From: Perkinsus marinus ATCC 50983
Lineage: Eukaryota > Perkinsozoa > Perkinsida > Perkinsidae
Assembly: GCF_000006405.1 (NCBI RefSeq)
Contig: NW_003212397.1
Span: forward strand, 99,031 to 163,030
Reading direction: 5' to 3'
DNA length: 64,000 nt
The position numbers and the translations under genes are program-made. This document shows, in pieces, positions 1,091 through 63,231 of this stretch; the first letter of the stretch is position 1; each line of letters starts with the position of its first letter. The notes under the pieces are model-generated. The model saw nothing but the letters and a program-made list of their open reading frames with translations. It did no database searches and had not been told where the DNA came from.

Positions 1091-1902
1091 GCACTACACT
1101 TGTCGTCTAAGACGTCTGTAACACGTCTTGTCTTTTACGCCGTGATCCTCTCTAACTTCAATCCTTGAACATCTACCACTCCAGCTTACGTCGGTATGTC
1201 CGCGACACGGCCTCCATATCTCAGTGTTCGTGTAACAGGCCCTTCGTTTGACGGCCAGACCATCAAACGCTCCCAACAGTGATCATCCCTGAGTCGAACT
1301 CTCTTCCCTTGAATGGTCTTGTGCTGACCATGGTTCCACACGTCACGGCGTGGCGTCATCACGAGAACTCACTAGACGCACGAAACTTTCATGACTACGT
1401 TACCTGACATACAGCAACGAAACGGGATCTTCAGGTTTCTTACGCTTCTTTTCCTATCCGTAGCGACTCGCGAATCGGTAAATCGCGACAGCCTTCTCCA
1501 TTGTGGGTCGGTGGTTTGGATCGCGCAAAACTTTTGTGCGGATGATCGGCTTTTGTCGATAGCATCGAAAGGTTATAAGACTTGTGGAACACAACACCAT
1601 GAATATACGGTTGACTTCAATTAGTATATTCAGATCAATGGAATAGCCCTAAACTACGGGCTGAACTACGGGGACAGCTGTTTCACAGTATGCTCAACAG
1701 GCTCCATGATGAGTTATAAGCATCTCACTGGTGAGAAATCCATCGTGTACTATAATGCTCCCTGAGGAGCTCTAAGTCCCGAGTACTATAGTGACTCACT
1801 AATAGTGAGCGTGATCCACCATAACAGATTCGATGGCGTCACACCGTCTCTTAATTGCCCACACTCTCGAGCATTTGTTTTAGCGTTGATACTCCCATTC
1901 AC
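1091..1902. other. no recognisable gene; one template-switch-like hairpin
   Basis: No gene is supported. At 1789-1808 the 6-mer TAGTGA occurs, then its reverse complement TCACTA after one base, then TAGTGA again after one base; the flanking base is not complementary to the second spacer, unlike the other copies of this structure. Confidence 0.5.
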
Positions 1903-2100
1903 ATGCGTCTTCCTGTCATACTCTTCATGGTATACTGCTTCATGCAGTGCTCAGGCCTCAAGTATGGCTCAGAGGGTAACGATCTTGTGGCCCCGAACGA
2001 AGAGTTGACTATACATTGTGGTGCTGAAACGTGCTCGGGGCCGAGCTGTACATGTTGTCCGATGCCTCCCGAATATTATGAAGTATGTTGCGAATGTTGA
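1903..2100 (+). CDS. small secreted cysteine-rich peptide (65 aa)
   Basis: The frame from ATG 1903 to TGA 2098-2100 encodes 65 residues. The N-terminus has a basic residue followed by a hydrophobic stretch (MRLPVILFMVYCFMQC), a good signal-peptide candidate. The remainder is short and holds eight cysteines at residues 39, 44, 49, 51, 52, 62, 63 and 65, spaced like a disulfide-knotted secreted peptide, ending CCEC just before the stop. I cannot assign a family. Topology recalls the six-cysteine peptides at 36.2, 55.4 and 63.6 kb, but the spacing differs, so homology is not shown. An upstream in-frame ATG at 1855 would place the hydrophobic segment internally, which is why 1903 was preferred. 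Confidence 0.55.
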   Translation: MRLPVILFMVYCFMQCSGLKYGSEGNDLVAPNEELTIHCGAETCSGPSCTCCPMPPEYYEVCCEC

Positions 2101-2651
2101 TGTATGGCAGGTTGCAATTGTATGTGAAGGCCCAAGATCCTCTACACCAAGTACAACTTCTTCTTGCGCGCAATCTCCTGATGCCGATAGTGACATATGT
2201 ACGATCAGCACCGTTCATTGCACCCTTTTCCATGCGACATTCTTTGCTAAATTTTTCCCACACCGTTACGAGTTATGATCGTACATTTTTCTGTGCCATC
2301 TCTAGTTTCCCATTTTCCGACGCCCAACTCACACAACCTATTTGAAACCTCATCTTCAGAGTGCGGAGGGATTGAGTTGCCATCATGTCAAGCGTAAATT
2401 CTGCTACATAGGAAAAAGCCGTATCAAATTCGCACCACCCTGTATAAAAGGGAATGGTGAACCAATTTGATCCCTCTGAGGTTCCCCTGGAAATTGAAGT
2501 AACTAAATAACAGGTGATCCCAGAAACCGTGTATTGACGGCGAGAAACGGTTGAATCTGAAATTGGTGACCAATACGTAGAATAATCACACATTCTTTCA
2601 CTTGCTTGTACGAGTATGTTATTTCAGTGTTGAAATATGTTTTTGGTTACT

Positions 2652-2774
2652 CCACCTGAGCTCAGGAATCATCGAAACTCCCACACGACCTGTGCAGAAA
2701 GCAACGATATTTCCCGACATTTCCTTCTTGTCACTAACACATGCAGTTGACCATATGTATATTCCCCAACACTT
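2652..2774 (+). repeat. dispersed ~150-bp repeat, copy 1
   Basis: It starts near CCTGAGCTCAGG and ends near CCCCAACACTT, with the internal core CTAACACATGCAGTTGACC. The same ordered blocks occur at 10.74, 45.28 and, inverted, 26.70 kb. No coding capacity is preserved among copies. Confidence 0.75.
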
Positions 2775-3670
2775 CTATGCAAAGCACCTTAGTGATATCA
2801 GGTTGAACTGTTCACGTCCATATATGAACCCAACATCACCATCATCGATCTCAATACTTCTAGTAACTAGTTGTATCTACTCACGTGCACTAGTCGTAGT
2901 AAATACTCAGTAGACCAGAGAACTAGTACAATACGTATCAACCCAGGGATTGTAATCAATCGCTCAAAGGAGTAACCAATCAGTCAACAACTTTATCACA
3001 ATCAGTACAGAGTACTTCCACGTGACCGTTACGGATACGTTGCGGAATCCGAAACCGTCGGATACGTCGGGCGAAGATACTCATCTTGCGCACTTTTCGG
3101 AAAATACAATTATCATAAAGCATGATACACCGAGTCATGCGAGTACAACAAATCATCATGACATGTCTTATACTGCGAACTCGGTCGACTTAATTACGGC
3201 CACCCTTTCTCCTTGGCCGCCGCTTCATCCCTTTGATTCAGTCTTGAGTCGTCCAAGAATCCGAAGAGCTTCGGTCCAGATCCAACTTCGAGGCTCGCCA
3301 TCTTCAAGTTGCTGCCAGTGCTTCAGGTCCAGTCTTCTCCAACTCCCTCCGTCCTTCAGGTTCTTCTCTCGAGGCTTGACCAACAAGAACTGGATCCAGC
3401 ATATGGTAGAGTGCCAGGGTAGGTACCGGTAGACATGTCACTGGTCAAGATTGGCCCAGGTGCTGAGGGACTCAAAAGCATGAGATCCCCACCTTCTATG
3501 CGCAGGTACAACATCCCGGAGGGTAGGCGCAAGAAGGGGCTGACCCATTGGAGAGGTCAGAGCAGCATGCATCGAGGCATCAGTCCCTTGGTCCTCTCTA
3601 ACCCTAAAGGTTAGCAGAGGATGGAGCTAGGCTCTCTTTTCATTTCTTTTCTGGTGCTCGGGACTTGAGT
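2775..3670. other. no recognisable gene
   Basis: A 136-codon open frame at 3022-3432 (+) has no recognisable motif, a low-complexity Ser/Pro-rich middle and no splice context. It may belong to the 3' flank of the adjacent LINE. I do not call it. Confidence 0.45.
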
Positions 3671-4195
3671 TCATATAGTAAGAACTCGCACCGTGCTCAA
3701 GGCACAGACCACAAACCTCTGGCGTAGGCAAGATCCAGAGGCGGGTCTTAGCGACATTAGAGATCGCAAGGACCAAGTGACAGTACCGGACACCACACCA
3801 CTAGACCAAGGGGCACGAAGCCCATCACCCGGCTTGATTGTTAGACATCCCGGAGGGTAAAGCCTGCAGTGACCCAGGGGTAGCTTGCCGCGCCCTGGCA
3901 TGGTCCGGCCCATAGCCTTTACCAGGAACTTGTGGACAGCGGCCTCAAGAGCAAGACACATCCAGACTTCAGGAGTTGGAGAGACCTGACCATCCACACC
4001 AGCGAACAACTATCCAACAGCTCACCCTTCCGCTTTCTCCTTCCCTAACCCTTCTTCATCAAGTGGCCGATCTCGGACTTTACTCTCCAGGAATCGGCGT
4101 TGGACGCCAGAGTACTCATGGAAAGGACAAAAACAAAACTGTCCTGGGCCTTGGATGAGCGCCAGCAGAGACGCTGACGCCATCAGTCCGCACTG

Positions 4196-4590
4196 CTAAG
4201 GCTGAGTCTCCGCTTCTCGGAGATTCTTCAGCCACTCGAAGGTCAGCTTCGCCATCTTCAGTAGGGAAGGACGATACCGACGGTCGAGGATCATCTTGTA
4301 ATTCGCCTTCGGCAGAACTCGCGAAAGCTTCGAGTCGCGTCGGGCACCGTCCAATAAAGGACAGTCTCGTAATAAGTGCTTCACATCTCCGTTGTCCCAG
4401 CCGCAGGGGCAGGAAGGATCGGCTCTGATGCCCATCGTACACCGGTGGTGCGGTGTGAGGGCATGACCTGTAATTAAGGCAGCAAGCTCGGGAGAAGACC
4501 TACCAGCCTTCAAATAGCGCTTGGCGTGGCTGTAGCCCCATAGAAATCTTGCGCACTTGTCGTTCGGAACGACTCGTTCCTAGGCTCACG
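4196..4590 (-). pseudogene. LINE (non-LTR retrotransposon) C-terminal fragment
   Basis: The minus-strand frame ending at 4196 reads into a region typical of the C-terminus of LINE polyproteins downstream of reverse transcriptase/RNase H: a GHxxxxxH segment (LITGHALTPHHRC), then CPCG followed by HLLRDCPLLDGAR, i.e. a CxC...H...C zinc-knuckle-like arrangement. Upstream the frame includes FLWGYSHAKRY and then meets stops near 4580 and 4591, so the element is 5'-truncated and no reverse transcriptase is present. A 14-nt template-switch-like insertion at 4559-4579 shifts the frame at the upstream edge. Likely an old dead copy; the leftward flank (about 3430-4190) is probably its 3' UTR. Confidence 0.65.
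4559..4579. repeat. 21-bp W-n-W'-m-W hairpin, exact
   Basis: W is TCGTTC (4560-4565), spacer G, reverse complement GAACGA (4567-4572), spacer C, then TCGTTC (4574-4579). Preceding base G4559 pairs with spacer C4573. Confidence 0.9.
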
Positions 4591-4899: not shown

Positions 4900-5022
4900 T
4901 AGTATGCACGCATCATTTCATATCTGTAACCACTGACACTTCTGTAACCATCTCCCGTAGATGTTTGTATGTCTATCATTGATTCACTCCATTATTGCTA
5001 TGTCTGCAACGTCACCTGCAGC

Positions 5023-5043
5023 AGGTGACGGTCACCTGGTGAC
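5023..5043. repeat. 21-bp W-n-W'-m-W hairpin, exact
   Basis: W is GGTGAC (5024-5029), inverted copy GTCACC (5031-5036), W again (5038-5043). A5023 pairs with spacer T5037. An older palindrome, GTCACCTGC/GCAGGTGAC, overlaps its left side. Confidence 0.9.
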
Positions 5044-5082
5044 CTGCGTCGCGTATTATGATCCCGGGGTCAGGGTTCTCCC

Positions 5083-5200
5083 TAATTATTTCTTTTTATT
5101 TCTTTCTAGGTATTTCTTTTCGAAAAGAATACGAAGAAATATTAGTTCGATTGTTTCTAGAAAGAATTGAAAAGAATTGAAAAGAATTAAAAAGAATTCA
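5083..5200. repeat. AT-rich foldback and GAAAAGAATT tandem
   Basis: A 16-bp perfect palindrome TTCTTTTCGAAAAGAA (5114-5129) is flanked on the left by TTTCTTTTT runs and on the right by tandem copies of a GAAAAGAATT-like decamer (about 5159-5200). A similar polypyrimidine/polypurine foldback lies at 8430-8520; both adjoin a CCCGGGGTC motif. Confidence 0.6.
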
Positions 5201-6320
5201 GTTTTTCGGGTTTTTTGAGATTTAGTCTTACAAAATGGTCGGGTCTATTGACTATGACATGATATAAGAGTTAACCAATGCCGTCGGTAGGTTAGTTGAC
5301 TCAACCTACTTGAGTCTGCTACTGGAGCCTTCAGTCTGAAGGTTTCGCGGCCAAACTTTGGCCAGACGAGAGGCGGTCTCTCAGAGGCCAGTGGCCGGAG
5401 GTGTGGCCGAGGATGACACGTATGAATAATCAAGTTCGGTCGAATTTCTGCCTTTTTTACACTGACCCTGATATACTCCGTCTGAATAGGTCCGGAGGGC
5501 CCATTGTATTCAGACTCTGAATTTGGGAAGAATCAATTGGGAACAGAATCTTGATCATAGCTGTTGGAAACTCCAACCACAAAATTCTTGTCCATCGCTT
5601 AGAGTCCGCCAGAATAATGCTGACACCTTAACTCAATGGCCCACTCTAATGGAAAGCACTGAGCAGTCTACCAAGCTAAGGGTTTAACTTAAACCGTTTG
5701 AGTAACAAGGTAGGACTTCCTCCTCAGAAACTTGATATTCAATCAAAGAATAGGTTAATTTGATGAGAACTGCCAGCGAATCAGAGCGCGACGAATGAAG
5801 GTTGCTATGGTAGGCCTGACAAAAGAGGTGAAGTAAAGGCAAATGAAGCTTGAAGTATTCGGGACCTACTTGCAACGGTCAGGCTGTTTGAATAATGCTG
5901 CAGGCTCACACGTAGTTGCCGGAATCGATGACAAGCTGTGCATTAGAGCAGCGAATGATGATGTATCTCTGTACATAAACCAAGACTGGCTTGGCCTCAT
6001 TGTGCACATAATTTTGTCATCTAAGTCCGCATAGGCCCCTAAAACCCTTGACTCACTCAAGAGAATAATGTCAAGAGTTAATGCCCAATGAGAATCTCTT
6101 ACCTTGATGGAAGAGATATTTCGTTGCGTCCTTGCCACTCTCCATATCAATGATCTTCATGAGTGGACGACTCTTGCTTTGCTGCGAAAAAACGCCAAGG
6201 CTTTCTCTTTTCCATGCCGAGTCATCTCTGAATTCCCGTGGATCGAATCTTGCGATCCAAAGAAGGTGACATGATGCATCGCACAACCTGAGCTGTCAGT
6301 TCGAAGATAATGTCCAATTG
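5201..6320. other. no recognisable gene
   Basis: Several frames of 60-95 codons exist on both strands without motif, signal or splice support. Nothing is called. Confidence 0.45.
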
Positions 6321-6324
6321 CAAC

Positions 6325-8190
6325 GCCTTTCCACACTCCAATACTCTATAGCTCATAGAATCTGGGTGTATACTTGTGTTGTATCAGAATCGCCATGGAC
6401 TAGATATTCGAGACACCAAAACTCAGCAATTATTGACATTGACCCCAAATTTCTTCCACACTCTACTACTCTATAGCTCAAAGAATCTGGGTATATACCT
6501 GTATTGTATCAGAATCGCCATGGACTAGATATTCGACACACCGAAATCCAGCAATTATTGACATTGACCCCAAATTCCTTCCACACTCTACTACTCTATA
6601 GTTCAGAGAATTTAGGCGTATGCGTGTATTGTATCAGAGTCGCCATGGACAAGATATTCGAGACACCGAAGTTCAACAACTATCGACATTGACCTTAATG
6701 TCCTTCCAAACTCCACACTCCACTACTCTATAGCTTATAGAATCTAGGTGTATACTTGTATGGTATCAGAATCGCCATGGACAAGATATTCGAGACGCCG
6801 AACTTCAGCATTTATTGACATTGACCTTGAATTCATCCCATGCTCTACTACTCTATAGTTCTTAAAACCTAGGTGTATACTTGTATTGTATCAGAATAGC
6901 CATGTAGAAGGTATTGGAGACACCAAAAATCAGCAATTATTGACATTGACCTTAAGTTTATCCCACGCTCCACTGCTCTATAGTTCATAGAATCTAGGTG
7001 TATACGTGTATTGTATAAGAGTCGCCATGGACAAGATATTCGAGACACCGAAGTTCAGCTATTATTGAAACTGACCCCACAGTCCTTCCACACTCCACTA
7101 CTCTATAATTCATAGAATCTAGGTGTATACTTGTATTGTATCAGAATGGCCATGGACATGAAATTCGAGACACCAAAATTCGGTAATTATTGATATTGAC
7201 CCCAAGTTCCTTCCACATTCCAATACTCTATAGCTCATAGAATCTGGGTGTATAATTGTATTGTATCAGAATCGTCATATACTAGATATCCGAGAGTCTC
7301 GAATCGAGACACCGAAATCCAGCAATTATTGACATTGACCCCAAATTCGTTCCTCACTCTACTATATAGCTCAGAGAATTTAGGTGTATACGTGTATTGT
7401 ATCGGAGTCGCCATGGACAAGATATTCGAGACACCGAAGTTCAACAACTATCGACATTGACCTTAATGTCCTTCCAAACTCCACACTCCACTACTCTATA
7501 GCTCATAGAATCTAGGTGTATACTTGTATGGTATCAGAATCGCCATGGACAAGATGTTCGAGACGCCGAACTTCAGCATTTATTGACATTGACCTTAAAT
7601 TCATCCCATGCTCTACTACTCTATAGTTCTTCAAACCTAGGTGTATACTTGTATTGTATCAGAATAGCCATGTAGAAGGTATTGGAGACACCGAAACTCA
7701 GCAATTATTGACATTGACCCCAGATTCCTTCCACACTCTACTACTCTATAGCTCATAGAATTTAGGTGTATACGTGTATTGTACCAGAGTCGCCATGGAC
7801 AAGATATTCGAGACACCGAAGTTCTACAACTATTGACATTGACCTTAGTGTCCTTCCACACTCCACTACCCTATAGCTCATAGAATCTAGGTGTATACTT
7901 GTATGGTATCAGAATCGCCATGGACGAGATATTCGAGACACCAAAATTTGGTAATTATTGACATTGACCCCGAATTTCTTCCACACCCTACTACTCTATA
8001 GCTCACAAAATCTGGGTGTATACTTGTATTGTATCAAAATCGCCATGGACTGGATATTCGAGACACCGAAGTTCAACAACTATTGACATTGACCTTGAAT
8101 CTATCGTTCATTCACAATCTATCCCACGATCTACTACTCTATGGTTCATATAATCTAGGTGTATACTTGTATTGTATCAGAATCGCCCAG
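6325..8190. repeat. 125-bp satellite with 6-unit (768-bp) higher-order repeat
   Basis: About fifteen head-to-tail units. Using the word CGCCATGG as a phase marker, it or its variant occurs at 6391, 6516, 6641, 6773, 6898, 7023, 7148, 7273, 7409, 7541, 7666, 7791, 7916, 8041 and 8184. The basic step is 125 bp; a 132-bp step follows 6641 and again 7409. Six consecutive markers from 6641 to 7273 recur exactly 768 bp later, together with diagnostic variants such as AGCCATGTAG at 6898 and 7666. The single 136-bp unit contains a 14-nt hairpin insertion and a 3-nt deletion. Open frames inside are repeat translations and are not annotated. Confidence 0.93.
7289..7309. repeat. W-n-W'-m-W insertion in one satellite unit
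   Basis: W2 is TCGAGA (7304-7309), inverted copy TCTCGA (7297-7302), W1 CCGAGA with one substitution (7290-7295). T7289 pairs with A7303. Sister units read GATATTCGAGACACC without the extra 14 nt. Confidence 0.85.
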
Positions 8191-9260
8191 TTCTCATTAA
8201 ATGATGCCCGATTGTTCTCTGTTGAAGCCTAGTTGCTCATGACCCTCGAGTATCACCTCCTCCGTTACCTTTACCGCGGGGACTTATTAATAACGTCCTC
8301 GTAAGTCGCATTTTCTTGTAATATCTCGACTGTCAATCATCACCGATAGGCGGTGCCTTGTATTTCCATGCTCATACCTTCAAATCATCTTTCGTAAATT
8401 CTCAGACTAGAAATTGTAGCATATAATTCAATTGTTTTCATTTCTTTCTCGTTTCTTTTTAAAAATTTTTGAAAGAAATAATGAAAAAGAAATAAATGAA
8501 TTCTTTTTGAAAAAGAAAGAACTCTGCCCGGGGTCCTTCCCAACACCAGAGAGTAGTGCAACCGATCGAGGGTGAAGTGACAACAATCCCGCTGTGGAAA
8601 AACATTAGTTGTTTGGGGGACATTGCCTATGTGCCTGGCAGGCACTGCGTGCGTGCTAGGCAATGTGACTGTGGTATTGAGCCATTTTCGGGGCGCCGGC
8701 GCAGTTTAGCGGCCGCCGGCAGGCTTATACCAAATTTTCCCAAGTGATCCGAGTGGTTCTGAAATCTGCGGTTCTGGAAACGATTTCAGAAACGCGCAGA
8801 AGAATTTTTGAACACGTTCAGTAGTGATTTTGGAAACGTTCCCGGAAGAAAATTCCAGAATCGGTTCTCTGAACATGGCTTTTCAAAAACGATTCTCGAG
8901 TCGATTTTGAAACTCGAATCGATTTACTGAACAGGCCGTGAGTGCATAATGACATTAAGATACCACTAGGGACTATAATAGGGCTTGGCCGGTTACAGCC
9001 ATAGCCCAAAGATAGATAGGAACCTCTCCGAGTAAGAAGCGACCGAAGGCTCGCGTTTGACCTTCTTAAACGTCCCCCTAGCGGTTTGCCTACGCTCGAC
9101 GCGTAAACTGCCCATGTCGGGACCGCGGGTCAATTTAAGTGCAACAACCATTGGGTAAACTTTTCCTTCGAATCATGAATAGAATCAAAAGTGGGATATA
9201 AGGTGAAGTAGACCAGCAACAGTAGCATGACTGATGAAGATTGCTCAGAGAGCTTCCAGA
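8191..9260. other. no recognisable gene; foldbacks and degenerate repeats
   Basis: Contents: a poly-TTTCTTT / GAAAGAAA foldback at about 8430-8520; a W-n-W'-m-W hairpin at 8631-8651 (TGCCTG, CAGGCA, TGCGTG; one mismatch); and about 8750-8940, a degenerate series of GATTCTGGAAACG-like words on both strands. No gene is supported. Confidence 0.5.
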
Positions 9261-10882: not shown

Positions 10883-12635
10883 TCCAAACCGTGGTGCTAT
10901 AGCGGGTATGTAAACTGAACACTGATGGAACAATTTGTTCTCACGAGTGCTACCTGGGATGAAGGTTGGTTATTCGGCATGATTAAGTGTATCATGTTAT
11001 CTGGTAATATATTCTTCCCGGAGAAAGTGAGTCGTATTGATTTGAAGTTGCCAATGACACCATTGGCTTATACCATACTCTCTAATGAGAGTACGGATAT
11101 CCTCCGCCAGAACGGCTCCCCAACCGAAGAGACCGCGGTCAGCGGGCGGAGTCAACAGCTGACCCTTCATTGATATGCATTCGGGTTTCGGATCCACCCT
11201 ATGGGTGCGGCTCAGCGAAGAGCATCCCTATATGGCGCGAGGGAGGGTCATCAGCACGTAATGTGGAGGAAGTGTGGTATCTGCACGCGTGCCGCCGTTT
11301 CATATCGAGAATAGGTTCGCAAATCTTCAAGCTTGGCATTTAGCACCCTTTGCGAACCAATAGAATGATGGAGTATTCATTGCTTTAGATGCAGACTGCA
11401 TCATGCAGTGTGTCATTGGACAACAGACATTCAACAATAGTCTATTAGAGTGTTCAGGGTGAGCCAGCGGGCGATTCAAGTTTAATTATGTTATGAATAC
11501 ACTTTAGAGTCCGTAGTGTAGACCATCCCGTTGAGCTCAAGACTAATTGTATAATATCAAGTTCATAGGTTGGATCGAATTGGCCATGCATCATCTTCGT
11601 GACTCTATTCCCTGTGGTGGCCTAACCATGATAGAGAAGTGCAGAGGTTGAACTTCACCACATAATATACCATTTCCCGATGAATCAACAGATATACTCA
11701 TTCAGGAAACCATCATTTGGCACTGCAAGCTACATCTACATTTGTAAAAGCAGCGAGTGCCCCGTAGCCGATCATCGAGGTTGCTTTGGTGATTGTCGAT
11801 TCTCTCTATCATAGCCCGTGACTCAGAGAGGTTATTGTCCATACAGAGCCTCCAGTTCTCCACTCCAACCCCCGACAACGACAACTCAAAGCATTGTTGC
11901 CTGACAAATGGAAATAGTAACAGTAGGGACTATACAAGTCGTGCAGTGATTCAATGCCGACTGCCGGTTGCTGGTGTAATGAAAATCATCCCATGCTTGA
12001 CCAGTTACCTAAACAGCGAGTGTCCCTATGACTCACCAAGTATTGGAGCCTCTCAATGAACACACGAGTTCGACAAGATACGGTATTCATTCTGTCGTTT
12101 TACGTACTAAAACCGAAGACTGTAATGAAAACCAGTGCATCCCTTAGCATCAATACAATGCGCCGAATTTAACCGAAGCGTGGTATGCGGATCAATATAG
12201 AAAGCCCCATCTCCTCACTACGGATGTGATGAAGATTTTGCATTCAGAGCCAGAGTTTTACCAAAGCGCATGGGGGCATTATAAAACATGAGCAGTGCCG
12301 GCGCATCCCAAGACAACCGAGCAAGAAACACTAATCGCAGTCCCAGTGGGAACAACGTCAACTAGCAGCTCGAATTTCAAGAACCACATGAGCGGCATCG
12401 TCCTCTGAAAAGGATGATGAATGTGCACATTGCCATCGAGACACGGTGGGCCAATCAAATCTCACCTACTGCCGTTATCCCACCTCTCGCGTTTCCTCCT
12501 AGTACGACTATTGAAATGATATCACTACGTGCACGCTCCTCTGAAGCCATGTTGTTTAGTCGGATAGAAACAGTTGTAGGCTCGAGTGTAGCCTACAACC
12601 TAGAGGTATCATTCGGCCCCCTCGGTCCAATGAGC
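10883..12635. other. no recognisable gene
   Basis: Two inverted structures only: an exact W-n-W'-m-W hairpin at 11388-11408 (W ATGCAG, inverted CTGCAT, G11388 pairing with C11402) and a 10-bp-arm hairpin at 12573-12599 (GTTGTAGGCT / AGCCTACAAC, 7-nt loop). Plus-strand frames lack motifs. Confidence 0.5.
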
Positions 12636-21228: not shown

Positions 21229-22748
21229 TCACACCAACAGAAGTCGAAAAACTCTCTGAAGATTCCTTTTCTCTGTAGATCTCATTTGAAATCTATGATG
21301 GAAAAGCCCGTCAAGTGAAGTGCCATGATCATCACCAGCAGTTGTCCGTTCAGAATCCAGAAATTTGATATTGTTTTTTCCAAAAACTGTCTCTAATTCA
21401 GCACGGTACTCCTCGACCGTACACAGAGCCGGACATGCCACTATATCTCGCAGAGCTTCCCGATCTGACAAAATAGAAGAAGTCATGAGTCAACACAACA
21501 ACAAGGGTTATTGCGGAGCGAACGAAGTAATATCGGAGCTATATACTACAACTCGAGTAAGTGTGCGTGCGTGCGTACGAAATATTTCTCCACGACTAGA
21601 GTTTGAACATGACGCAAGCACCAATCGAGAGCTAAACGAATGGCTACACCCAGCAAAGTATAAAGATCTCCATTTGGTACCTCCCGGAAACAATTTTTTG
21701 CGTGAAAATTACCCGAGCCTGGGATTCGAACCGGAGACCTATGTCGCGCTACAGGGTTGAACACAACAGGCGGTCTAATCCCGTCAAGAATCAGCTAAAC
21801 ACGTAGCGAGCGCCGCCACTTCATCGAGAAGGTCTAGTGGGACTTACCTTCCTTCTGTACCGTATTGGAGTGAATTAAGACCAGATCTTCAAAATACAAG
21901 TCACAGCTTGCTTGTGGAGATGCCTATGTGAACATAACGTCACCACCACATTGCAACACCCAAAAGCCTACGGGCCGGAGGATTTCCTTCACCCTTTCAA
22001 AAAGCTTTCTTTTATCGTCCATATGACACTGAGAAAAACCAGCTGTTCTCAACCATGCTGAGTCTATTACAAAACATAGAAGGCTGATAGCAAAGTCGAA
22101 TGGCCCTCCTAAAGAGGCCTGAGTCGCGTTAAAAATATCAGCGGTGATGTATTTCGCTTTGCTCCCTTCGCAGTAACCTGAAGACAGCGTCACAGAGCAC
22201 ACCTCGAGCTCATATACATGAATTAACCATGCTTTAAATCTTTCAGTGATTATTTATAGAAACGGGTCGTCGTCAAGCAAGGATCACAGTGAATAACACT
22301 AGCACTTTTTCCCCTACTACTGGAGCATTCCTTGCTATCTATCTCTTCAGCGAGACGAGCAAAGCTGTCGAATATGTCCATACTGATACCTTCCACATAG
22401 GGTAAGTTACTTGTCATGTACCTTACCGTACTGCCAAGCCCACCACCTATGTCCAACACCTACAATACCAAATGAGGATGCTCATACAATCATCGTTTAT
22501 GCGACGATCGGTCTGAGTCTAGTTACGCTGACATTGTTCACGTCGTGAACTTCACGACCAGCCTTCCAAAGGCTGGGGTACTCTCCCATCCTCATTACCT
22601 TAACAGGTCTATCCCTAGAAGGGTTCATATGCAAAGCCACTATAGCATTTGCTACAGCGGTGTGCCCCAGGTAGTGCTGACTCGTGAGCCCTTCTTCATC
22701 AGCACATAGAATCTGAAAAAGCAACTTATCGCATCGACAGACTATCAA
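21229..22748 (-). CDS. SAM-dependent methyltransferase (class I fold), multi-exon
   Basis: Four minus-strand exons can be seen. The first, at about 22718-22529, carries LTSQHYLGHTAVANAIVAL and is spliced in phase 0 to the second (22459 leftwards), which opens with VLDIGGGLGSTVRYMTSN, a clear SAM-binding motif I. A third (about 22175-21990) contains YITADIFNATQ and GGPFDFAISLLCFVID, suiting motifs II-IV. A last exon runs to a stop at 21229. The order fits small-molecule methyltransferases (phosphoethanolamine/sterol type); the substrate is not readable. The intron before the last exon contains a SINE-like insertion, and a W-n-W'-m-W hairpin sits in the first exon. The start codon was not resolved. 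Confidence 0.65.
21490..21765 (-). mobile_element. possible tRNA-derived SINE in an intron
   Basis: On the minus strand 21765-21700 reads CTCCGGTTCGAATCCCAGG, matching a pol III B box (GGTTCGAANCC), preceded by GCGCGACATAGG like an anticodon arm. No matching 5' acceptor stem is present, so it is not a tRNA. About 250 bp of unrelated sequence follow, ending in a GTGTGCGTGCGTGCG-like simple repeat. Confidence 0.4.
22536..22556. repeat. 21-bp W-n-W'-m-W hairpin inside a coding exon
   Basis: W is TTCACG (22537-22542), inverted copy CGTGAA (22544-22549), W again (22551-22556). G22536 pairs with spacer C22550. It lies at the 3' edge of the first visible methyltransferase exon, next to its splice donor. 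Confidence 0.88.
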
Positions 22749-23270: not shown

Positions 23271-23570
<300 letters not shown>

Positions 23571-37119: not shown

Positions 37120-37140
37120 GTGTGTAATACACACTGTGTA
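37120..37140. repeat. 21-bp W-n-W'-m-W hairpin, exact; insertion vs array copies
   Basis: W is TGTGTA (37121-37126), inverted TACACA (37128-37133), W again (37135-37140). G37120 pairs with C37134. Homologous positions near 47850, 52110 and 59790 read CTAGTGTTTATATCTGC without it. Confidence 0.92.
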
Positions 37141-37489: not shown

Positions 37490-38062
37490 TTACATTAGAA
37501 TGTCATTCATGACAGTATTCAGCCAGGACTTGGCTGGCAGGTTCAAATGTATACCCATGGTTCGAAGCTCCTTTGTACACTCATTAGCATGATCATGCTA
37601 AGAGCGTATATCTCCTAACCAACAGGATTCGAGAGGGTGGGAGAAGAAATAACGATCTTCCTTCGAGGGTGCCACAAGGGTGTCATTAGCTATAGCTTTC
37701 TTAATTGTGGCCGTATCGCTCTGTCAATCTGTTCTGAGGCGATTCGCTAGGGCGCAGGATCACTTTACTCACGCACACCAACTCTTCAAGAGTTACTTTC
37801 GGTGGGAACATCATATGGTCGACATTCTTCATAACGAGACTCCGTGAACCGATCTCTAACACAGCCTGGAAGAGGCAATCGACGCGTCATAGCATCGGGG
37901 TCCAATGAGTGTTCACGAAGGGAATACCGAGTGGTCCCATTTTGTGTCACGAAATTCGTGATGGTACTGTGGAGTCCATAGTATGGACATCTTCATCTTA
38001 TACGAGCCTCAGCTCACGACGACTCCATCACCTTGGCGATTCCCATGCAATTGACAGCTTGA
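37490..38062 (-). CDS. unidentified small multi-exon gene
   Basis: Minus-strand open segments in plausible order: MGIAKVMESS (about 38062-38030); VLEIGSRSLVMKNVDHMMFP followed by PKVTLEELV (about 37870-37780); SDTATIKKAIANDTL; and HANECTKELRTMGIHLNLPA to KSWLNTVMNDILM, stop near 37490. GT and AG dinucleotides fit at each junction, but exon borders were only partly verified. No family recognised. The first intron carries two W-n-W'-m-W hairpins. Confidence 0.4.
37940..37960. repeat. 21-bp W-n-W'-m-W hairpin, one mismatch
   Basis: TTTGTG (37941-37946), inverted CACGAA (37948-37953), TTCGTG (37955-37960). T37940 pairs with A37954. Confidence 0.75.
37967..37987. repeat. 21-bp W-n-W'-m-W hairpin, one mismatch
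   Basis: TGTGGA (37968-37973), inverted TCCATA (37975-37980), TATGGA (37982-37987). C37967 pairs with G37981. Only 6 bp from the preceding one. Confidence 0.75.
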
Positions 38063-42259: not shown

Positions 42260-44575
42260 ATGCTTACGATCAGTCGTAACACACGTCGAACACACGCCTC
42301 ACATCTGGCGACCGGAACGCAATGAAGTCCGCTTTGTTGGAGAGGTCGCTTCCGTGCTCCTCGACAACTTGTCCTCCCAAATCCATACGTATCCTCACCG
42401 GGTTGGAGCACATATGAACGCCCTTGAATTTTTCTGAGGTACACCACTAAACCCGCGAGAAACCGAGCCACCATACTTGCAATCCTCTCCGTGAGATAGT
42501 CCCCAAGGGCAGGAATCGGCAGGAGACCTCCGATGCCAGCAGGATCGTCCGGGCCGGGTACGAATACAAGCTGGGAGTTGGCCATAGTTTCTGAAAATGG
42601 ACAGTAGAGGGATCGAACCAGGAACCTCGGGCATGTGCAATCCACATCATTCCTAATCTTACTCGGGTATTGTTCCAATTCTTCCGATAACCGAGCCCAG
42701 CATGCTCTATAATCTCTGACACTTTTCGCTGACTGACAGAAAAGCCAATGCCACTACTATACCCACTCATCCTTCATTCTATTATAGAATTTCTATAGCT
42801 TCTCATACCAAGTATGGTAGAGCTAATTCTAATAGTATATTCTAAAAACGAATCGAGAAATTCCGGACCAGAATTCTGACGGGGGGATTTTGCAATAATC
42901 CTCATTTAACTCACTTCGCGAATCATCAATAGCCGAAAAATTCCAATCCATGTAATACCTTCATATTGACAGGCTTCTTGGTGAAGTTGCCCATGAAAAC
43001 ATACACTGCTGGAGGCGGCTGATCCATCCTCTCAAAGCCGAAGAGAATATCGGCCAATTTTTCCAAGGTATCATCGTCATCCAAATGGACCTGAAAAGAC
43101 ACCTCCCTATTGCCAGAGCTACTAATGACACGATTTACTTCGCCCATGACCACCACCATGAGGTCCTCGGCCGACTCAAGGCCAGGTTGGCCGATCTCGG
43201 AGATCTCGAGCAAGCCGGTATGGTTACCGAGCTGATTGTCTCTGGCCGTCGCACCAAAGATGTCTATGGTGGGGTCGCAGAACTTCCGTGAAACTACCTC
43301 GGGAAGAGAACGACGATATGTATTTGTTAGATTTGTTAGCCATGCTCTTTCGTATCAGATCACGAACGTCAATTGAACATGAAAAATGATGGCAATCTAG
43401 CTACAACTACGGGCAGATATTGCTTTTTCACTAAACCGTCCGTCCTCAACAGGAGATCTAATGCATTAAGATCATACTGGCTGGTAGCTATAGGTTACTC
43501 TTAGGAGGCATCTTCATCTCAAGTACGTGAAAGATCCCGTCACCCAAGTCGGACATTTCTCCTTTCAGAAGCACCTACGGTAGCCAATGCATAAAGAGAA
43601 TGGATCGATACTCCTACGAAGCTCGCATCCACAACGATGAGCTCGCTACTCGGCACACACTGAGAGAAATCTAACTTGACATTCTGGTGAATATCCTCAA
43701 TCTGCAATGACCCCTCAGATGCTCTCGAGAGAAGACCGAATACGAACTGAAGAAAGTCGTCTCGACAAGCCTCAAATCAGCTTGCAAGAATATACTCACT
43801 TTAACACCCGCGTTGCCCGGCAAATTCTCAACGGCAGTTATTACAATACGCTCGCTAGTACCCGGATTGAGGAGTGACTGCTCTTCTGGCTTCGGGGGCT
43901 CCTCAATGCAAATGTCCTAGACAAAACGCTCAATATGAAATATTCCTAGTAGGAGCTAAATCTTGTTGGATCATATATGATGGAAAGTTATATAGTCACA
44001 TCAAAAGAACTGAATGCTGCAGTTCTCATTGAGAAGTACTTCAACATCAGGATTGATGCTGATTCTCTCCATCATTCCTCCCGTCGATGCCTGGAAAACG
44101 TCCCCCAGGCCCTTGACACGGATCTGTAGTAATATATTCGATCAAGTTGAGATCCTACTCCTAACCTTGGGCATTTTAGATCCCTCCGAAGCGATTTTTT
44201 CCATTGCCAAATCCACGTACGTAGGATTACCGGACGATTCTGATAGGAGATATGAACAAGCTTGCTCACCAGAGCCGTACGCCAGAGAGCTTTCCGAAGG
44301 GCCAGGAACCTCTCCCGATACATCGCAGAATGTTCTGGCGCGCCACCCATCACTGAGGGCAGCTTACGAGCCGGCACCTAGCGGAAGACGATGCGAGCCC
44401 TTAGAGTCAATGGCATTACGAACTGCTGGGCATCCTGAGCGTTGGTGTACCGTAAACCTGCTCTAACAGGACCACCAAGAGAGCCATAGGCATCGATGAG
44501 GCGAATGCACGCGGGTCGAGAAGATGAGGAGACTCCGTCTAATGGCATTACTCGGGCTCCCTTATTGACACTCAT
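42260..44575 (-). CDS. DNA polymerase epsilon subunit B (POLE2/DPB2)
   Basis: Minus-strand exons in order: a less certain N-terminal part from ATG 44575; MYRERFLALRKALWRT (about 44320); NPGTSERIVITAVENLPGNA (about 43870); IEDIHQNVKLDFSQCVPSS and LIVVDASF (about 43700-43620), matching the OB-fold LEDPTGxVQLDLS region; VLLKGEMSDLGDGIFHVLE; LADILFGFERMDQPPPAVYV with FMGNFTKKP (about 43030), equivalent to PPxxFILCGNF; and LVFVPGPDDPAGIGGLLPIP (about 42570), the hallmark VFVPGPEDPG of the inactive phosphoesterase domain; then NPVRIRMDLGGQ. It is the essential structural subunit of the leading-strand replicase. The C-terminus is tentative. Confidence 0.82.
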
Positions 44576-49457: not shown

Positions 49458-49478
49458 GACAGAGCCTCTGTCACAGAG
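49458..49478. repeat. 21-bp W-n-W'-m-W hairpin splitting the integrase frame
   Basis: ACAGAG (49459-49464), inverted CTCTGT (49466-49471), ACAGAG (49473-49478); G49458 pairs with C49472. Same at 57121-57141. Confidence 0.92.
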
Positions 49479-49644
49479 GCTCCAGAGACATCCCATCGCC
49501 TGGGAGCGACTTTCCAGCTGCACATGTTTCGCATATGTGTTGATTGATAACACGAGCTAGACTAGCTGAGCTAGTCCTGGACTGTCGAACCATAGTGAAT
49601 ATTCTCCGTTACCATCGACCTCAGTCCCGTCGATGAAAAAATAC

Positions 49645-53034: not shown

Positions 53035-53055
53035 GTGTGGACTCCACACTGTGGA
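53035..53055. repeat. 21-bp W-n-W'-m-W hairpin, exact; absent in unit C
   Basis: TGTGGA (53036-53041), TCCACA (53043-53048), TGTGGA (53050-53055); G53035 pairs with C53049. The empty site is at about 60699-60705. Confidence 0.93.
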
Positions 53056-53095
53056 GAGGTGCTTAACTTTCGGGAGATATCAGAACATGACTCCC

Positions 53096-53116
53096 GGTTC
53101 AAATTGAACCGTTCAA
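53096..53116. repeat. 21-bp W-n-W'-m-W hairpin, exact; absent in unit C
   Basis: GTTCAA (53097-53102), TTGAAC (53104-53109), GTTCAA (53111-53116); G53096 pairs with C53110. Empty site 60747-60753. Confidence 0.93.
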
Positions 53117-53489
53117 TACGATCGGCGTTCACGGCGGAGGCCGGTTGTGATAGTTGTACTCAATGAAAGTATCCACTGGAGCACCGACAATAGACTCTAC
53201 TGGATCCTATCTGATGCTGGGGTGCTTATTCGCATACTACTGTTTCGAGGCATGATCATCCGCATGATAATCCATCGTATTCAGCTATACATCGGCTCCG
53301 AGTATCGTGCAGACTGCATGACACAAAGCTTCTCATGATTTGAGAACTTCCTCTTCGGCCTAGGCATAGTATAGACGGTGGTCCGTCCTCGTAGGCGTTC
53401 TCCATCCCTCATCGCTCTCGTTGCCCATCATGGGGACAAGCTCGATCACTGAAGTGCGCGAGTGATCACGTAAGAGTGGTGATGGCCAA

Positions 53490-53510
53490 CTCCACCGGGT
53501 GGAGTCCACC
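53490..53510. repeat. 21-bp W-n-W'-m-W hairpin, exact; absent in unit C
   Basis: TCCACC (53491-53496), GGTGGA (53498-53503), TCCACC (53505-53510); C53490 pairs with G53504. Empty site 61127-61133. Confidence 0.93.
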
Positions 53511-53849
53511 CTACGATTCTCTATCGTAGGGTGTCATGGGCAGCCCATGACACCTTTCTCGATCCAATCCCAAAACTCAAAAGGATGACGATGGAGATCG
53601 GCAGTTGGGCACAATTTCTCCGCGTGTCGAGGTTTCCAAATATCACCGAGCAGGAATCTCGTTCGACCACTAGCGCTTCGTCAGAAGGCGTGCCACTGGG
53701 ATAACATCATCGTTGTGCCGATTCAATCGGCACAACTCACAATTTGTGAGTGTCTCGCAGTGAGACCATATCCACCACGTGCCGGATGACCTATCATCGT
53801 TAGGTGCACTCATGCATCAGGCTCCCGCTCGTCGCAATCAGTAGGTTCA

Positions 53850-54947: not shown

Positions 54948-54968
54948 GTGTGACTGTCACACTGTGAC
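54948..54968. repeat. 21-bp W-n-W'-m-W hairpin, exact; absent in unit C
   Basis: TGTGAC (54949-54954), GTCACA (54956-54961), TGTGAC (54963-54968); G54948 pairs with C54962. Empty site 63162-63168. A related but mutated one lies at 54883-54903 and 63090-63110 (ATGCTG/CAGCAT/ACGCTG) in both units. Confidence 0.93.
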
Positions 54969-55459
54969 AGACAACTCCCATGTTTACGGACACATCAACG
55001 ACGAGGGAGAACCTCGAGTTCCGTAAGGGAGTTCTTGTTGCCTCTCATTCTGCTTGTGTCGTAACGCGTGTAACTAGTCCTTGAGCAGAACACGACAGCA
55101 CAGTCCCCAAGGAGCCTGGAAATTTAAGAGCATGATGAAAACCTCAAAAGCCATACGCTATCGATCAACTGGACGTATACGGCATATTTCAACCAGGACA
55201 AAAGGAGTGGTTTCGGGATCGAGAGAAAAGATGAATGAAGAGAGAATGATGAATGAAAAGAGAATGATGAAGTGATAACGACCAGGTCGTCAAGGTTCCG
55301 GGCAATGACTGTTTGTGAATCGTCATTGAATGAAATTGAACCAATGTTCGCTACTCATGCGAAACGCCTCTGAACTCCTCATTCGTTAACCTGAACATGA
55401 TTGCGTATTCCGTATTGCAAAATGTGCAAGAATCACTCACGGAGAACGCCATGACTTAC

Positions 55460-56257: not shown

Positions 56258-57223
56258 CTACTTCGACCTTTTTGACGACGAAGATGCATTGGGCGATAGT
56301 GGGAGTAGTTTAACGTCGGTGGAATGGATAGTTGCAGTAGATGGGAGATAAAGACTAGTCGCAAATAGGGACAAAGCTAGGAGTCTCACCAGTATCACAC
56401 AGAGCAACATATGAATACAACACTTAGCCATACTGGCACAACGGTAGCTATCCAGCACCTTTCCAGCTTGCCACCTTGAATTGGAGGGTGATATAGGACT
56501 CGCGGTGCAACAGAAAGCTTCGGGGCTGTGTACGGAACCAAACATTGTCGGACATACTCGTAATCGGTCCTGCATTCACGAGGCACATGCGTTCCAGGAT
56601 CCGTCTGGAAGCGGAATATCATCCCATGTGGGCTACTCTCTTTTCTTCTCGTAGTGCTCCACAATCTCACCGCTTTGCGAGACAACTCGCAGAAACGCGT
56701 ATACGTCATTTCCTCACCATTATTGTGGGTTCGCAAGTATTCGTTCACGAAATGATGGAGTCTTTCCATCTTTCCATTGCAGAACGAACTACCCCTTGGT
56801 GTGGTAAAGTGAACGGTGTCCCATGTCTCCAGCAGTGATGCTATGGAGCTCGACGTGTACTAACTTCCCATATCGGTGTGTACTACACACTGGGTAGTAT
56901 TAACGGTGCTATGCGGAAATTTTCCGCCAATAATGAAAGCAAATCACTGGCATCTGAGGCGATAGGCGTATTCAGTGTTGTGCGAATTGCAACGAACCCC
57001 GAATAGCTGTCGATCGCCGGTACAATATAGTACCGACTACTTCCATCTGTCACCCGAGAATACGGCTCAGTGGTATCGGAGTGGATTCGTCTGAATGGGT
57101 GCGCGGCCTTGGGAATGGAGGACAGAGCCTCTGTCACAGAGGCTCCAGAGACATCCCATCGCCTGGGAGCGACTTTCCAGCTGCACATGTTTCGCATATG
57201 TGTTGATTGATAACACGAGCTTG
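56258..57223 (-). pseudogene. LTR-retrotransposon integrase fragment, copy 2
   Basis: Counterpart of 48595-49560, offset 7,663 bp, with only a few single-base differences seen (for example near 57020 and 57224). It carries the same frame breaks and the same hairpin insertions, so the damage predates the unit duplication. Confidence 0.72.
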
Positions 57224-57515: not shown

Positions 57516-57561
57516 TCGACAGTTTTGCCTCGGATCCGTGTCTTTGGGGAAATCGAACGTT

Positions 57562-60359: not shown

Positions 60360-61450
60360 TGATTGCCGGGTTGATGTTGTTGTCCACGGCTTTGCGGCCG
60401 CTCTATTCCCTCACGAATCTTCGAATGGTCTATCGAGGATGAATCAGTCGATATTCTTCAATCAGGGATGAGCAGGTGTTTACTTCTCCGTCCCGCGTAG
60501 CTCTTTTGCGACAAGCGGTCTCGATTCTGTGATCGAGACCTCCGCGCTGCCCCACGAGGATCGTGGAAAGAGCTTGTCACACTCAACCCTGAATGATGAA
60601 TACTCTCGTCGACGATGAGATCTCAGGAGGTTCTCGTTGACAAACTTTGTCAACTAGTGGATCAGAAGAGGTATTAGAAACTTTCTGATACCTCTTCTGG
60701 AGTGGAGAGGTGCTTAACTTTCGGGAGATATCAGAACATGACTCCCGGTTCAATACGCTCGGCGTTCACGGCGGAGGCCGGTTGTGATAGTTCTACTCAA
60801 TAAAAGTATCCACTGGAGCACCGACAAAAGACTCTACTGGATACTATCTGATGCTGGGGTGCTTATTCGCATACTACTGTTTCGAGGCATGACCATCCGC
60901 ATGATAATCCATCGTATTCAGTTACACATCGGCTCCGAGTATCGTGCAGACTGCATGACACAAAGCTTCTCATGATTTGAGAACTTCCTCTTCGGCCTAG
61001 GCATAGTATAGACGGTGGTCCGTCCTCGTAGGCGTTCTCCGTCGCCCACCGTTCTCGTTGCCCATCATGGGCACGAGCTCGATCACTGAAGTACGCGAGT
61101 GATCACGTAAGAGTGGTGATGGCCGACTCCACCCTACGATTCTCTATCGTAGGGTGTCATGGGCAGCCCATGACACCCTTCTCGATCCAGTCTCAAAACT
61201 CAAAAGGGAGACGATGGAGATCGGCAGGTGGGCACAATTTCTCCGCGTGTCGAGGTTTCCAAAGATCACCGAGGCTCGGTGCTCGGTGACCGAGCAGGAA
61301 TCTCGTTCGACCACTAGTGCTTCGTCAGAAGGCGTGCCACTGGGATAACATCATCGTTGTACCGATTGTGAGAGTATCGCAGTGAGACCATATCCACCAC
61401 GTGCAGGATGACCTATCGTCGTTAGGTGCACTGGCTCAGGCTCAGGTGCA
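60360..61450. repeat. hairpin-dense spacer of unit C
   Basis: Counterpart of 52680-53800. It lacks the three 14-nt structures of unit B but has its own at 61267-61294. Near 61435 a GGTGCACTGGCTCAGGCTCA direct duplication is also unit-specific. Confidence 0.8.
61267..61294. repeat. extended hairpin of the same class (28 bp); absent in unit B
   Basis: CACCGAG (61267-61273), G, CTCGGTG (61275-61281), CTCGGTG (61282-61288), ACCGAG (61289-61294). Unit B reads ATCACCGAGCAGG: a 21-nt difference, i.e. the usual 14 plus one more inverted 7-mer. Confidence 0.88.
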
Positions 61451-62049
61451 CTGGCTCAATGCATCAGGCTCCCGCTCGTCGCAATCCGTAGGTTCAACTA
61501 TGGGCCGTATGCGGATACTGATTCATGATCTGAGTCCATGATTCAACTCACCCTTCGATTCTGATTCATGACTCAACTCACACCTCGATTCGAGAGAACT
61601 GATTCAGATCCTTTGCTCAGGAGAAAGAGTCGAGATTTCTGAATATGAGTCCTTGAGACAGAGTCAGATTACGTCATCATGAGCAACATCCTTGATCCTT
61701 GATTTTAATCAGCTGCTGAATCCGATTTCCGATCGCTAAACACGATTCAAGATTCAAATCTATACTCAATGGCTGATTCAGAGTTTTTGGCACTGAGTCA
61801 GAGTCTTTCATCAACTCGAGTTTAAATGCTCAGAGTTGGGATTTTTACTCGTGATTAGAGATTAATTCTAACGAGCCGAGATTCTTTTACTCAACCTCAA
61901 AGCTGCTCAGATTGAATATCGCAATCTCACCTTGAATATGATCCGGGATCATATTCATGATGCATAAGTTCACATTTTAACACCGAACCCTGATTCTGAT
62001 TCACGACTTCAGCGCGCGCCACGGTAGACCTCCCTCAGCTCATTGCAAG

Positions 62050-62260
62050 GAGGCTCTAAATATGACCGTAGCCGGGGATAGAACCTCCCCTTCGCTTCGA
62101 TTAAGTGAAAGCATATCGTTAACCAGTTGAGCTGTGAGATTACGATACCAGACGGTGCAAGGAGGTATAGCGCACGTGGTAGATGCAGGCTATTAGTACG
62201 ACCGTGCCCGGGAACAGAACCCTTGCTTCGAGCACGTGGAAGCATACCCTTAACCAGTTG
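62050..62260 (-). mobile_element. dimeric tRNA-derived SINE-like element, unit C
   Basis: Counterpart of 54395-54605; B-box-like GGTTCTATCCCC and GGGTTCTGTTCCC, both degenerate. Confidence 0.5.
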
Positions 62261-62285
62261 AAGCGAACTAAGTTGAAACTCAAGA

Positions 62286-62630
62286 TCATTGATTATGTGA
62301 CTTGTAACAAGTCACTAGCTTGACCAAATCTATTATTCTGGCGCGGGGATTAACTTTCATCTGGAATTTCTGAATTAGGAACCTAGAGTTAGTTGACTCC
62401 GACGTTCGATTGAGTATATTGAAAAGTTCGAAGTACGGATGTGTACACGTGCGACAAAAGTTCTCTATGGGAGAGTTCCACCATTGTTGTAGTGTAACGG
62501 GAAATGTTCGTGTACTCGCGACGAATCTACCAGGTTCCAACCTCACAGAGTGACGTATTCTTCCATTCTTGAAATTGTCACTGTCGGTTGTGGGGCGTAG
62601 GCTACGCCGCGTAGCGATTATAGTCTTCAT
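62286..62630 (-). CDS. 114-aa ORF within a unit-C-specific insertion
   Basis: ATG 62630 to TGA 62286. A basic N-terminus is followed by TLQQWWNSPIENFCRTCTHP and ELFNILNRTSESTNSRFL. It lies inside about 560 bp (62270-62835) that unit B lacks, and has a hairpin of the 21-bp class at 62594-62614 near its start. No family recognised; possibly a fragment of a mobile element. Confidence 0.35.
   Translation of the reverse strand: MKTIIATRRSLRPTTDSDNFKNGRIRHSVRLEPGRFVASTRTFPVTLQQWWNSPIENFCRTCTHPYFELFNILNRTSESTNSRFLIQKFQMKVNPRARIIDLVKLVTCYKSHNQ
62594..62614. repeat. 21-bp W-n-W'-m-W hairpin, exact
   Basis: GCGTAG (62595-62600), CTACGC (62602-62607), GCGTAG (62609-62614); G62594 pairs with C62608. 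Confidence 0.92.
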
Positions 62631-63210
62631 CTTGTCAAAAATGTCTGATTCAAACTGTGATTCCCTGATTCTCTAAAATACTCAGATTCAATGGAATCAC
62701 CCGAAAAATCAGCCTCGTGAGCAAGGCTTATTAAGTGAGAGTATTAATCAGCCGGAAAATCAACCTTTGACTCTCGAATCAGTTCGGGGATACATATATC
62801 ATCGCGATGATCCTGATTTCTCGCTCTAGAGTTGAAAAATAAGTGAATCAGGGGTTCATACGCACCATCTGATTTTTTATCTGGGTAAATACTCTGACAC
62901 CTGTTGCATCAGGATCCCCATACGGCCCCTGTTAGAAATGTCGTAAAGGTATCTTGTAGCCGTATTGCTGCATAAGTAGACCACACAAGCATCGACTCTC
63001 TAGCGGTTGACTAGATGGAGGGCGGTAGATGATGTACCAGCCTCCCTCAAGTTTACCGATATGGCTACAACATTACAGCATTAATCATTAATGCTGACAG
63101 CATTACGCTGTAGGAATTATTAATTATTAATGATTAATATCGTAGATCAAGTTGAACGGATGTGTGACAAACAGCTGCCATGTTTACGGACACATCAACG
63201 ACGAGGGAGA

Positions 63211-63231
63211 ACCCCGACTCGGGGTCCCCGA
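63211..63231. repeat. 21-bp W-n-W'-m-W hairpin, exact; absent in unit B
   Basis: CCCCGA (63212-63217), TCGGGG (63219-63224), CCCCGA (63226-63231); A63211 pairs with T63225. Empty site 55011-55017; also empty at about 35775. Confidence 0.93.

What the first reader, a model, noticed from the sequence alone, without database searches (positions are those of the whole stretch)
1789..63231. Recurrent 14-nt templated insertions with constant W-n-W'-m-W geometry and variable sequence
About 20 loci share a 21-bp layout: base x, 6-mer W, one base, reverse complement of W, one base m, W again, with x complementary to m. Exact cases: 4559, 5023, 11388, 22536, 32999, 37120, 49458, 53035, 53096, 53490, 54948, 62594, 63211 (start positions); one-mismatch cases: 4879, 7289, 8631, 37940, 37967, 49213, 54883/63090. 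1789 fits except for x; 61267 is an extended form. Thirteen constrained bases predict about 64,000/4^13, roughly 0.001, exact hits by chance. W differs each time, so this is a mutational or mobilisation signature and not a sequence family. Wherever an empty paralogous site exists the gain is 14 nt (21 at 61267). Candidate mechanisms: snap-back template switching in replication, or a fixed footprint from hairpin-ended DNA transposition.
Basis: seen in the sequence. Interest (0 to 1): 0.93.

Follow-up and report, generated by a model that had tools for sequence, protein, structure and literature searches.

The report
Uniform hAT-type transposon excision scars
The repeated 14-base insertions are real and look like the scars left when DNA transposons of the hAT type jump out, here sealed in one strikingly uniform way in what is probably a relative of the shellfish parasite Perkinsus.

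Summary
The unit is an 8-mer T: each site reads T[1-7] + reverse complement of T + T[2-8], a gain of 14 nt over an empty site T. In the window 15 sites fit exactly, 15 with one mismatch and 16 with two, against means of 0, 0 and 0.4 in ten shuffles. Inverted repeats with a 1-nt centre number 71, against 1-11 for every other spacer from 0 to 20. Five canonical gains separate repeat copies; the empty site is T in three and T with one base changed in two. One ORF's only two protein matches point to Perkinsus.

Best reading: excision footprints of a hAT-type transposon. An 8-bp target duplication, flank hairpins opened 8 nt or more from the tip, and annealing of the two target copies explain every base of the exact sites. 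Each step has precedent; the uniform whole-target inversion at dozens of sites is what I found no report of. The transposase and the genome-wide count are untested, because the genome server answered nothing.

The parts
4559..4580 (.). exact footprint, T=GTCGTTCC
   Evidence: 0 mismatches
5023..5044 (.). exact footprint, T=AGGTGACC, lying inside an older footprint
5013..5048 (.). older footprint, T=CACCTGCT with 1 mismatch once the younger 14-nt gain is discounted
11388..11409 (.). exact footprint, T=GATGCAGT
22536..22557 (.). exact footprint, T=GTTCACGA
32999..33020 (.). exact footprint, T=GCTTGTTC
37120..37141 (.). exact footprint, T=GTGTGTAT
42776..42797 (.). exact footprint, T=ATTCTATA; between two ORFs that weakly match DNA polymerase alpha/epsilon subunit B (both below the curated cut-off), so perhaps intronic
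49458..49479 (.). exact footprint, T=GACAGAGG, also present at 57121 in the repeat copy
53035..53056 (.). exact footprint, T=GTGTGGAG; empty (one base changed) in paralog at 60701
53096..53117 (.). exact footprint, T=GGTTCAAT; empty in paralog at 60748
53490..53511 (.). exact footprint, T=CTCCACCC; empty in paralog at 61128
54948..54969 (.). exact footprint, T=GTGTGACA; empty in paralog at 63163
57121..57142 (.). exact footprint, duplicate of 49458
62594..62615 (.). exact footprint, T=GGCGTAGC, inside a stretch present in only one of the two aligned repeat copies
63211..63232 (.). exact footprint, T=ACCCCGAG; empty (one base changed) in paralog at 55012
61267..61295 (.). variant, gain 21: T[1-7]+rcT+rcT[2-8]+T[2-8], T=CACCGAGC; read as both hairpins opened 8-9 nt from the tip and joined at 2-nt microhomology
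53712..53751 (.). variant, gain 22: two 1-nt-centred palindromes (arms 12 and 8) overlapping by AC; implied duplication only 4 bp (ATTG)
55403..55417 (.). variant, gain 7: T[1-7]+C+T[2-8], T=GCGTATTG, the short-P type
5321..5389 (.). three one-mismatch footprints almost back to back (5321, 5342, 5368)
37940..37988 (.). two one-mismatch footprints (37940, 37967)
5063..8534 (.). possible non-autonomous hAT element 5071-8526 with 8-bp target duplication CCCGGGGT and termini CAGGGTTCTCCC / CAGAGTTCTTTC

Best explanation
Each site is the scar of a cut-and-paste DNA transposon of the hAT type that inserted, duplicating 8 bp (T), and later left. On leaving, the transposase nicks one base inside each flank and seals the flank into a hairpin, whose strand then reads T[1-7]-rc(T) on the left and rc(T)-T[2-8] on the right. 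Each hairpin is opened 8 nt or more from its tip, so each flank carries a 3' tail holding one complete 8-nt copy, rc(T) on one side and T on the other. These anneal, flaps are trimmed and gaps filled, giving T[1-7]+rc(T)+T[2-8], always 14 nt longer than the empty site. Shown: the layout, its near exclusivity, the empty sites, recency, variants. Inferred: the transposase, the hairpins, the annealing and hAT membership.
For: Target length 8 with 1-nt offset has 15 exact sites; settings with as many or nearly as many constraints have 0, and 2 at length 6. The only other setting with many near-fits, length 10 offset 3, is a shadow: 29 of 29 of its hits overlap canonical sites. Inverted repeats with exactly one central base: 71 of arm 7 or more, other spacers 1-11. 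Centres of such palindromes lie 7 nt apart in 20 pairs, other spacings up to 60 have 0-4. Five canonical gains between paralogs, empty site T in 3, T with one change in 2. Ac/Ds footprints are described as inverted repeats centred on the complement of the base bordering the transposon, arms up to 20 nt in S. [quoted passage not shown] T shows G at position 1 (26 of 56 strand-symmetrised, p=2e-4) and T at position 2 (25 of 56, p=0.004; no correction for 16 tests), i.e. GTnnnnAC, as Hermes prefers nTnnnnAn (PMC10368747 passage). Two variants (gains 21 and 22) can be read as both opened hairpins joined at 2 nt. A possible hAT element with an 8-bp duplication lies in the window.
Against: No transposase gene was found: every genome request after did not complete. 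Known hAT footprints are diverse (28 kinds among 128 revertants in Candida), whereas here one product dominates and no short-P class stands out (short classes are hard to see against chance). Three of the five paralog alignments hold no canonical gain among 14 indels, and one has a 14-nt gain that does not fit. The window holds one possible element against about 38 scars, and nine places pass the filter that found it. One variant implies a 4-bp, not 8-bp, duplication. The T at position 2 is not significant with exact sites alone (11 of 28, p=0.14).
Confidence: 0.75

Rival explanations
1. Replication slips: the nascent strand switches template to the other strand and back within a few bases, copying a short inverted piece.
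For: The product can be written as a two-switch event, and short template switching is described in ape genomes (PMC7954356, title and start of abstract seen in the listing).
Against: Such events should vary in length; here only length 8 with offset 1 is clearly enriched, and T carries a target-like bias.
Confidence: 0.07
2. Excision of another superfamily with an 8-bp duplication, such as Merlin or P, or one not yet described in Perkinsus.
For: Merlin-related ORFs and remnants are reported in P. marinus, and Merlin makes 8-9 bp duplications (PMC8101967 passages).
Against: The single central base of the palindromes is what hAT flank hairpins leave (passages); I know of no such hairpin for Merlin or P (recalled, not tested). 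Target bias resembles Hermes.
Confidence: 0.12
3. A domesticated hAT-like nuclease, or an element removed almost at once after insertion, makes the scars as a regular process, so scars far outnumber elements.
For: One possible element against about 38 scars in the window; Kat1 of Kluyveromyces is a domesticated hAT transposase that makes hairpin-capped breaks (PMC4763223 passages).
Against: No direct evidence; scars could simply accumulate over long times, as the even spread of 0, 1 and 2 mismatches suggests.
Confidence: 0.12
4. Assembly or library artefact.
For: The assembly has three 100-N gaps in the window.
Against: Scars of different ages exist, some shared by diverged repeat copies (49458/57121 and 49213/56876), and one is nested in an older one.
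Confidence: 0.02

Closest known systems
Ac/Ds excision footprints in S. cerevisiae, Candida and plants (PMC5873905 and PMC1978519, passages seen)
   Same: Palindromic additions centred on the complement of the base next to the element, explained by flank hairpins; long arms occur in S. cerevisiae; microhomology-mediated joining is inferred for yeast and Arabidopsis. One product can dominate at one site (11 of 17 in PMC1978519).
   Different: No product in the passages seen has the whole target copy inverted; here that product dominates across many sites.
Ascot-1 of Ascobolus immersus (Colot et al. 1998; only the citation seen; content recalled)
   Same: Natural hAT footprints with palindromic additions and biased outcomes (recalled).
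   Different: One locus and 48 products (recalled), not dozens of sites with one product.
Hermes (PMC10368747, PMC2803484, passages seen)
   Same: 8-bp duplication, nTnnnnAn target, hairpins on the donor flanks.
   Different: No such uniform inverted footprint is in the passages seen.
mPing precise excision aided by target-duplication microhomology (PMC4561436, search listing only)
   Same: The two target copies guide repair.
   Different: There the result is precise repair; here hairpin tails would make an inverted copy.
V(D)J P nucleotides (PMC3528771, search listing only)
   Same: Hairpin opening off the tip leaves inverted additions.
   Different: The listing describes one to three base pairs; here 8 nt or more.

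Membership tests
hAT transposon excision footprint | 8-bp target duplication | tested here: met
   Five canonical paralog differences, empty site T in 3 of 5 exactly and in 2 of 5 with one base changed; length 8 with offset 1 enriched. One variant implies 4 bp.
hAT transposon excision footprint | Flank hairpins with one-base offset, giving palindromes centred on the complement of the bordering base | tested here: met
   71 one-base-centred inverted repeats against 1-11 for other spacers. The sequence trace is met; the hairpin itself is inferred.
hAT transposon excision footprint | Target preference nTnnnnAn | tested here: inconclusive
   T at position 2 in 25 of 56, p=0.004, with exact and one-mismatch sites; 11 of 28, p=0.14, with exact sites alone.
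hAT transposon excision footprint | hAT transposase in the genome | not tested
   Search for PF05699 was asked for; none was answered.
hAT transposon excision footprint | Elements with CAGRG-type termini (recalled) and 8-bp duplication | tested here: inconclusive
   One possible element, 5071-8526, terminal 12 bp with 3 mismatches; nine places in the window pass the same filter, so chance is not excluded.
Short template-switch mutation | Variable length of the inverted piece | tested here: not met
   Of lengths 5-12 and offsets 0-3 only length 8, offset 1 is clearly enriched apart from its shadow.
Merlin or P excision footprint | Element-specific termini and transposase | not tested
   Genome tools did not complete; Merlin-related ORFs in P. 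marinus are from a paper.

The most novel reading that the evidence does not exclude
In this lineage hAT-type excision is a major source of small insertions and is sealed by one dedicated route, in which opened hairpin tails anneal through the duplicated target. Elements or a domesticated transposase may cut and leave so quickly that the genome records thousands of scars and few elements.
Probability: 0.2. Interest if true: 0.82.

Novelty: new variant of a known kind. Interest (0 to 1): 0.62.

Why it matters
The scars can be found by script, carry their own target sequence, and can be ranked in age by their mismatches. A genome with many of them would be a natural record of how hairpin-capped breaks are opened and joined, a step usually studied at single reporter loci. 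In the two most informative paralog alignments 8 of 17 indels of 4 nt or more are of this kind (0 of 14 in three further alignments), so locally it is a leading cause of small insertions. It would also give a simple marker of past transposition in other genomes.

Tried and rejected
Other lengths and offsets: target lengths 5-12 with offsets 0-3. Loosely constrained settings (length 5 or 6, offset 2 or 3) have many exact hits at about the chance level. Length 10 offset 3 has many near-fits, all 29 with up to 2 mismatches overlapping canonical sites. Length 6 offset 1 has 2 exact hits and length 5 offset 1 has 5, against about 0.06 and 1 expected; those away from canonical sites are mostly A/T-rich. 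Short or partial P-nucleotide products on an 8-bp target gave no clear second class. The search for full elements by 8-bp duplication plus 12-bp termini gave nine places, of which I judged only 5071-8526 to have hAT-like ends. The 562-bp stretch 62264-62826, present in one aligned copy only, was checked as a source element; its ends share AGTTGAAA near but not clearly at the junctions, and no inverted ends of 7 or more were found. Of the 17 indels in two alignments, 9 were not explained, among them the 92-bp and 25-nt ones; none of the 14 in the other three was explained. An RNA reading was checked: the only Rfam match at gathering level and the only ARAGORN gene is a tRNA. Introners were considered; a term search of PMC9860276 found no mention of Perkinsus.

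Paper searches: 10. The lists are capped: for example one search listed 12 of 3,057 papers and one search listed 10 of 11. I saw no title or abstract start that describes these scars; passages were seen only in the papers named. Limits: 46 sites include duplicates; sites are uneven (2 of 46 between 12 and 36 kb), so no genome total is claimed; clustering (11 gaps under 100 nt, simulated mean 3.1, maximum 10 in 2000) was tested without removing duplicates.
Full report
What is there. The 13 exact sites of the finding are as written. The layout 6-1-6-1-6 occurs 18 times in the 64-kb window, 0-2 times for each other spacer pair from 0 to 10, and never in 20 Markov shuffles. The unit is therefore an 8-mer T, and a site reads T[1-7], then the full reverse complement of T, then T[2-8]: 22 bases where an empty site has 8. 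Scored so, the window has 15 exact sites, 15 with one mismatch and 16 with two, against means of 0, 0 and 0.4 in ten shuffles. Target lengths 5-12 with offsets 0-3 were tried. Only 8 with offset 1 stands out; length 10 with offset 3 has near-fits that are all the same sites seen loosely (29 of 29), and loosely constrained settings have exact hits at about the chance level. 100 kb of E. coli gave 0, 0 and 1.

Independent signs of hairpins. Among inverted repeats with arms of 7 or more, those with exactly one central base number 71, and those with any other spacer from 0 to 20 number 1 to 11. In E. coli the one-base class has 6 and 8 per 50 kb, with 0 to 7 for the other spacers from 0 to 5. Among one-base-centred palindromes with arms of 5 or more, pairs 7 nt apart number 20, with 0 to 4 at every other spacing up to 60.

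Empty sites and recency. The window holds a tandemly repeated block. Five paralog alignments were made. Two of them (97.2% and 87.4% identical) hold 17 indels of 4 nt or more; 5 are canonical 14-nt gains, at 53035, 53096, 53490, 54948 and 63211. In the other copy the site is T in three cases and T with one base changed in two. Three further indels are variants: 61267 (gain 21) is T[1-7], rc(T), rc(T)[2-8], T[2-8]; 53722 (gain 22) is two one-base-centred palindromes with arms 12 and 8 that overlap by AC; 55404 (gain 7) is T[1-7], one complement base, T[2-8]. So 8 of 17 belong here and 9 do not. The other three alignments hold 14 such indels, none canonical, one of them a 14-nt gain at 35795 that does not fit. 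Substitutions in the first two pairs are 170 of 6013 and 145 of 1151. Sites with 0, 1 and 2 mismatches are about equally common, which suggests activity over a long time. At 5023 an exact scar sits inside an older one-mismatch scar, seen when the younger gain is discounted.

Where. Scars are dense at 4-8, 36-40 and 48-64 kb and rare between 12 and 36 kb (2 of 46). The exact site 42776 falls between two ORFs that weakly match DNA polymerase alpha/epsilon subunit B, below the curated cut-off, so it may be intronic. The organism: one ORF (14424-14942) had two protein matches, 97% identical to an unnamed public protein and 76% to a hypothetical protein of Perkinsus chesapeaki. The genome has 54.46 Mb in 347 contigs. 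The species is not determined.

How it most likely works. A hAT transposase cuts one base inside the flank and closes the flank on itself. Passages on Ac/Ds describe such palindromes, centred on the complement of the base that bordered the element, with arms up to 20 nt in S. cerevisiae (PMC5873905), and place the cut at the nucleotide flanking the insertion (PMC1978519); Hermes and Kat1 make flank hairpins (PMC4763223). With an 8-bp duplication the left hairpin strand reads T[1-7]-rc(T) and the right one rc(T)-T[2-8]. If both are opened 8 nt or more from the tip, each side offers a single strand with a full copy of the target, and the two copies are complementary. Annealing them gives the observed product whatever the exact opening points, which would explain its uniformity. 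The two long variants can be read as the same opened hairpins joined at only 2 nt. The target bias, G at position 1 and T at position 2 after strand symmetrising (26 and 25 of 56, uncorrected), agrees with the Hermes pattern nTnnnnAn and looks like the Hermes targets listed in PMC2803484. A possible non-autonomous hAT element, 5071-8526, with duplication CCCGGGGT, lies in the window. Hairpins, transposase and annealing are inferred; none was observed.

Against it. The usual mixture of hAT products is missing or hidden: no short class reached a clear excess, though short products have few constraints and are hard to tell from chance. Elements are scarce next to scars. The 53722 variant implies a 4-bp duplication. 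Other superfamilies with 8-bp duplications are not excluded.

Known or new. Hairpin-born palindromic footprints are known for hAT elements, and one product can dominate at one site (11 of 17), so this is not a new kind of event. What I did not see, in ten paper searches whose lists are capped and in the passages named, is one product with the whole target inverted at dozens of sites in 64 kb. I rate it a new variant of a known kind.

Noticed in passing
5063-8534: Possible non-autonomous hAT element with about 14 copies of a 125-bp tandem repeat inside and AAAGAAT-like motifs near both ends.
   Followed up: partly
45456-64000: A block is repeated at an offset of about 7.7 kb, part of it a third time; an ORF in it (48732-49196, also 56395-56859) reads to me like a retroelement integrase, without a family match.
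   Followed up: partly
53542 and 61165: Long one-base-centred palindrome (arms 12 and 14) in both repeat copies, without the second half of a canonical scar; perhaps a scar with a deletion.
   Followed up: no
5321-5389: Three one-mismatch scars almost back to back, and 11 gaps under 100 nt overall against 3.1 simulated (duplicates not removed); scars may attract further insertions.
   Followed up: partly
40572-41136: Tandem array of 100-bp units.
   Followed up: no
38519-39145: ORF matching the ribosomal RNA adenine dimethylase family above the curated cut-off, with what looks to me like an unspliced short intron.
   Followed up: no
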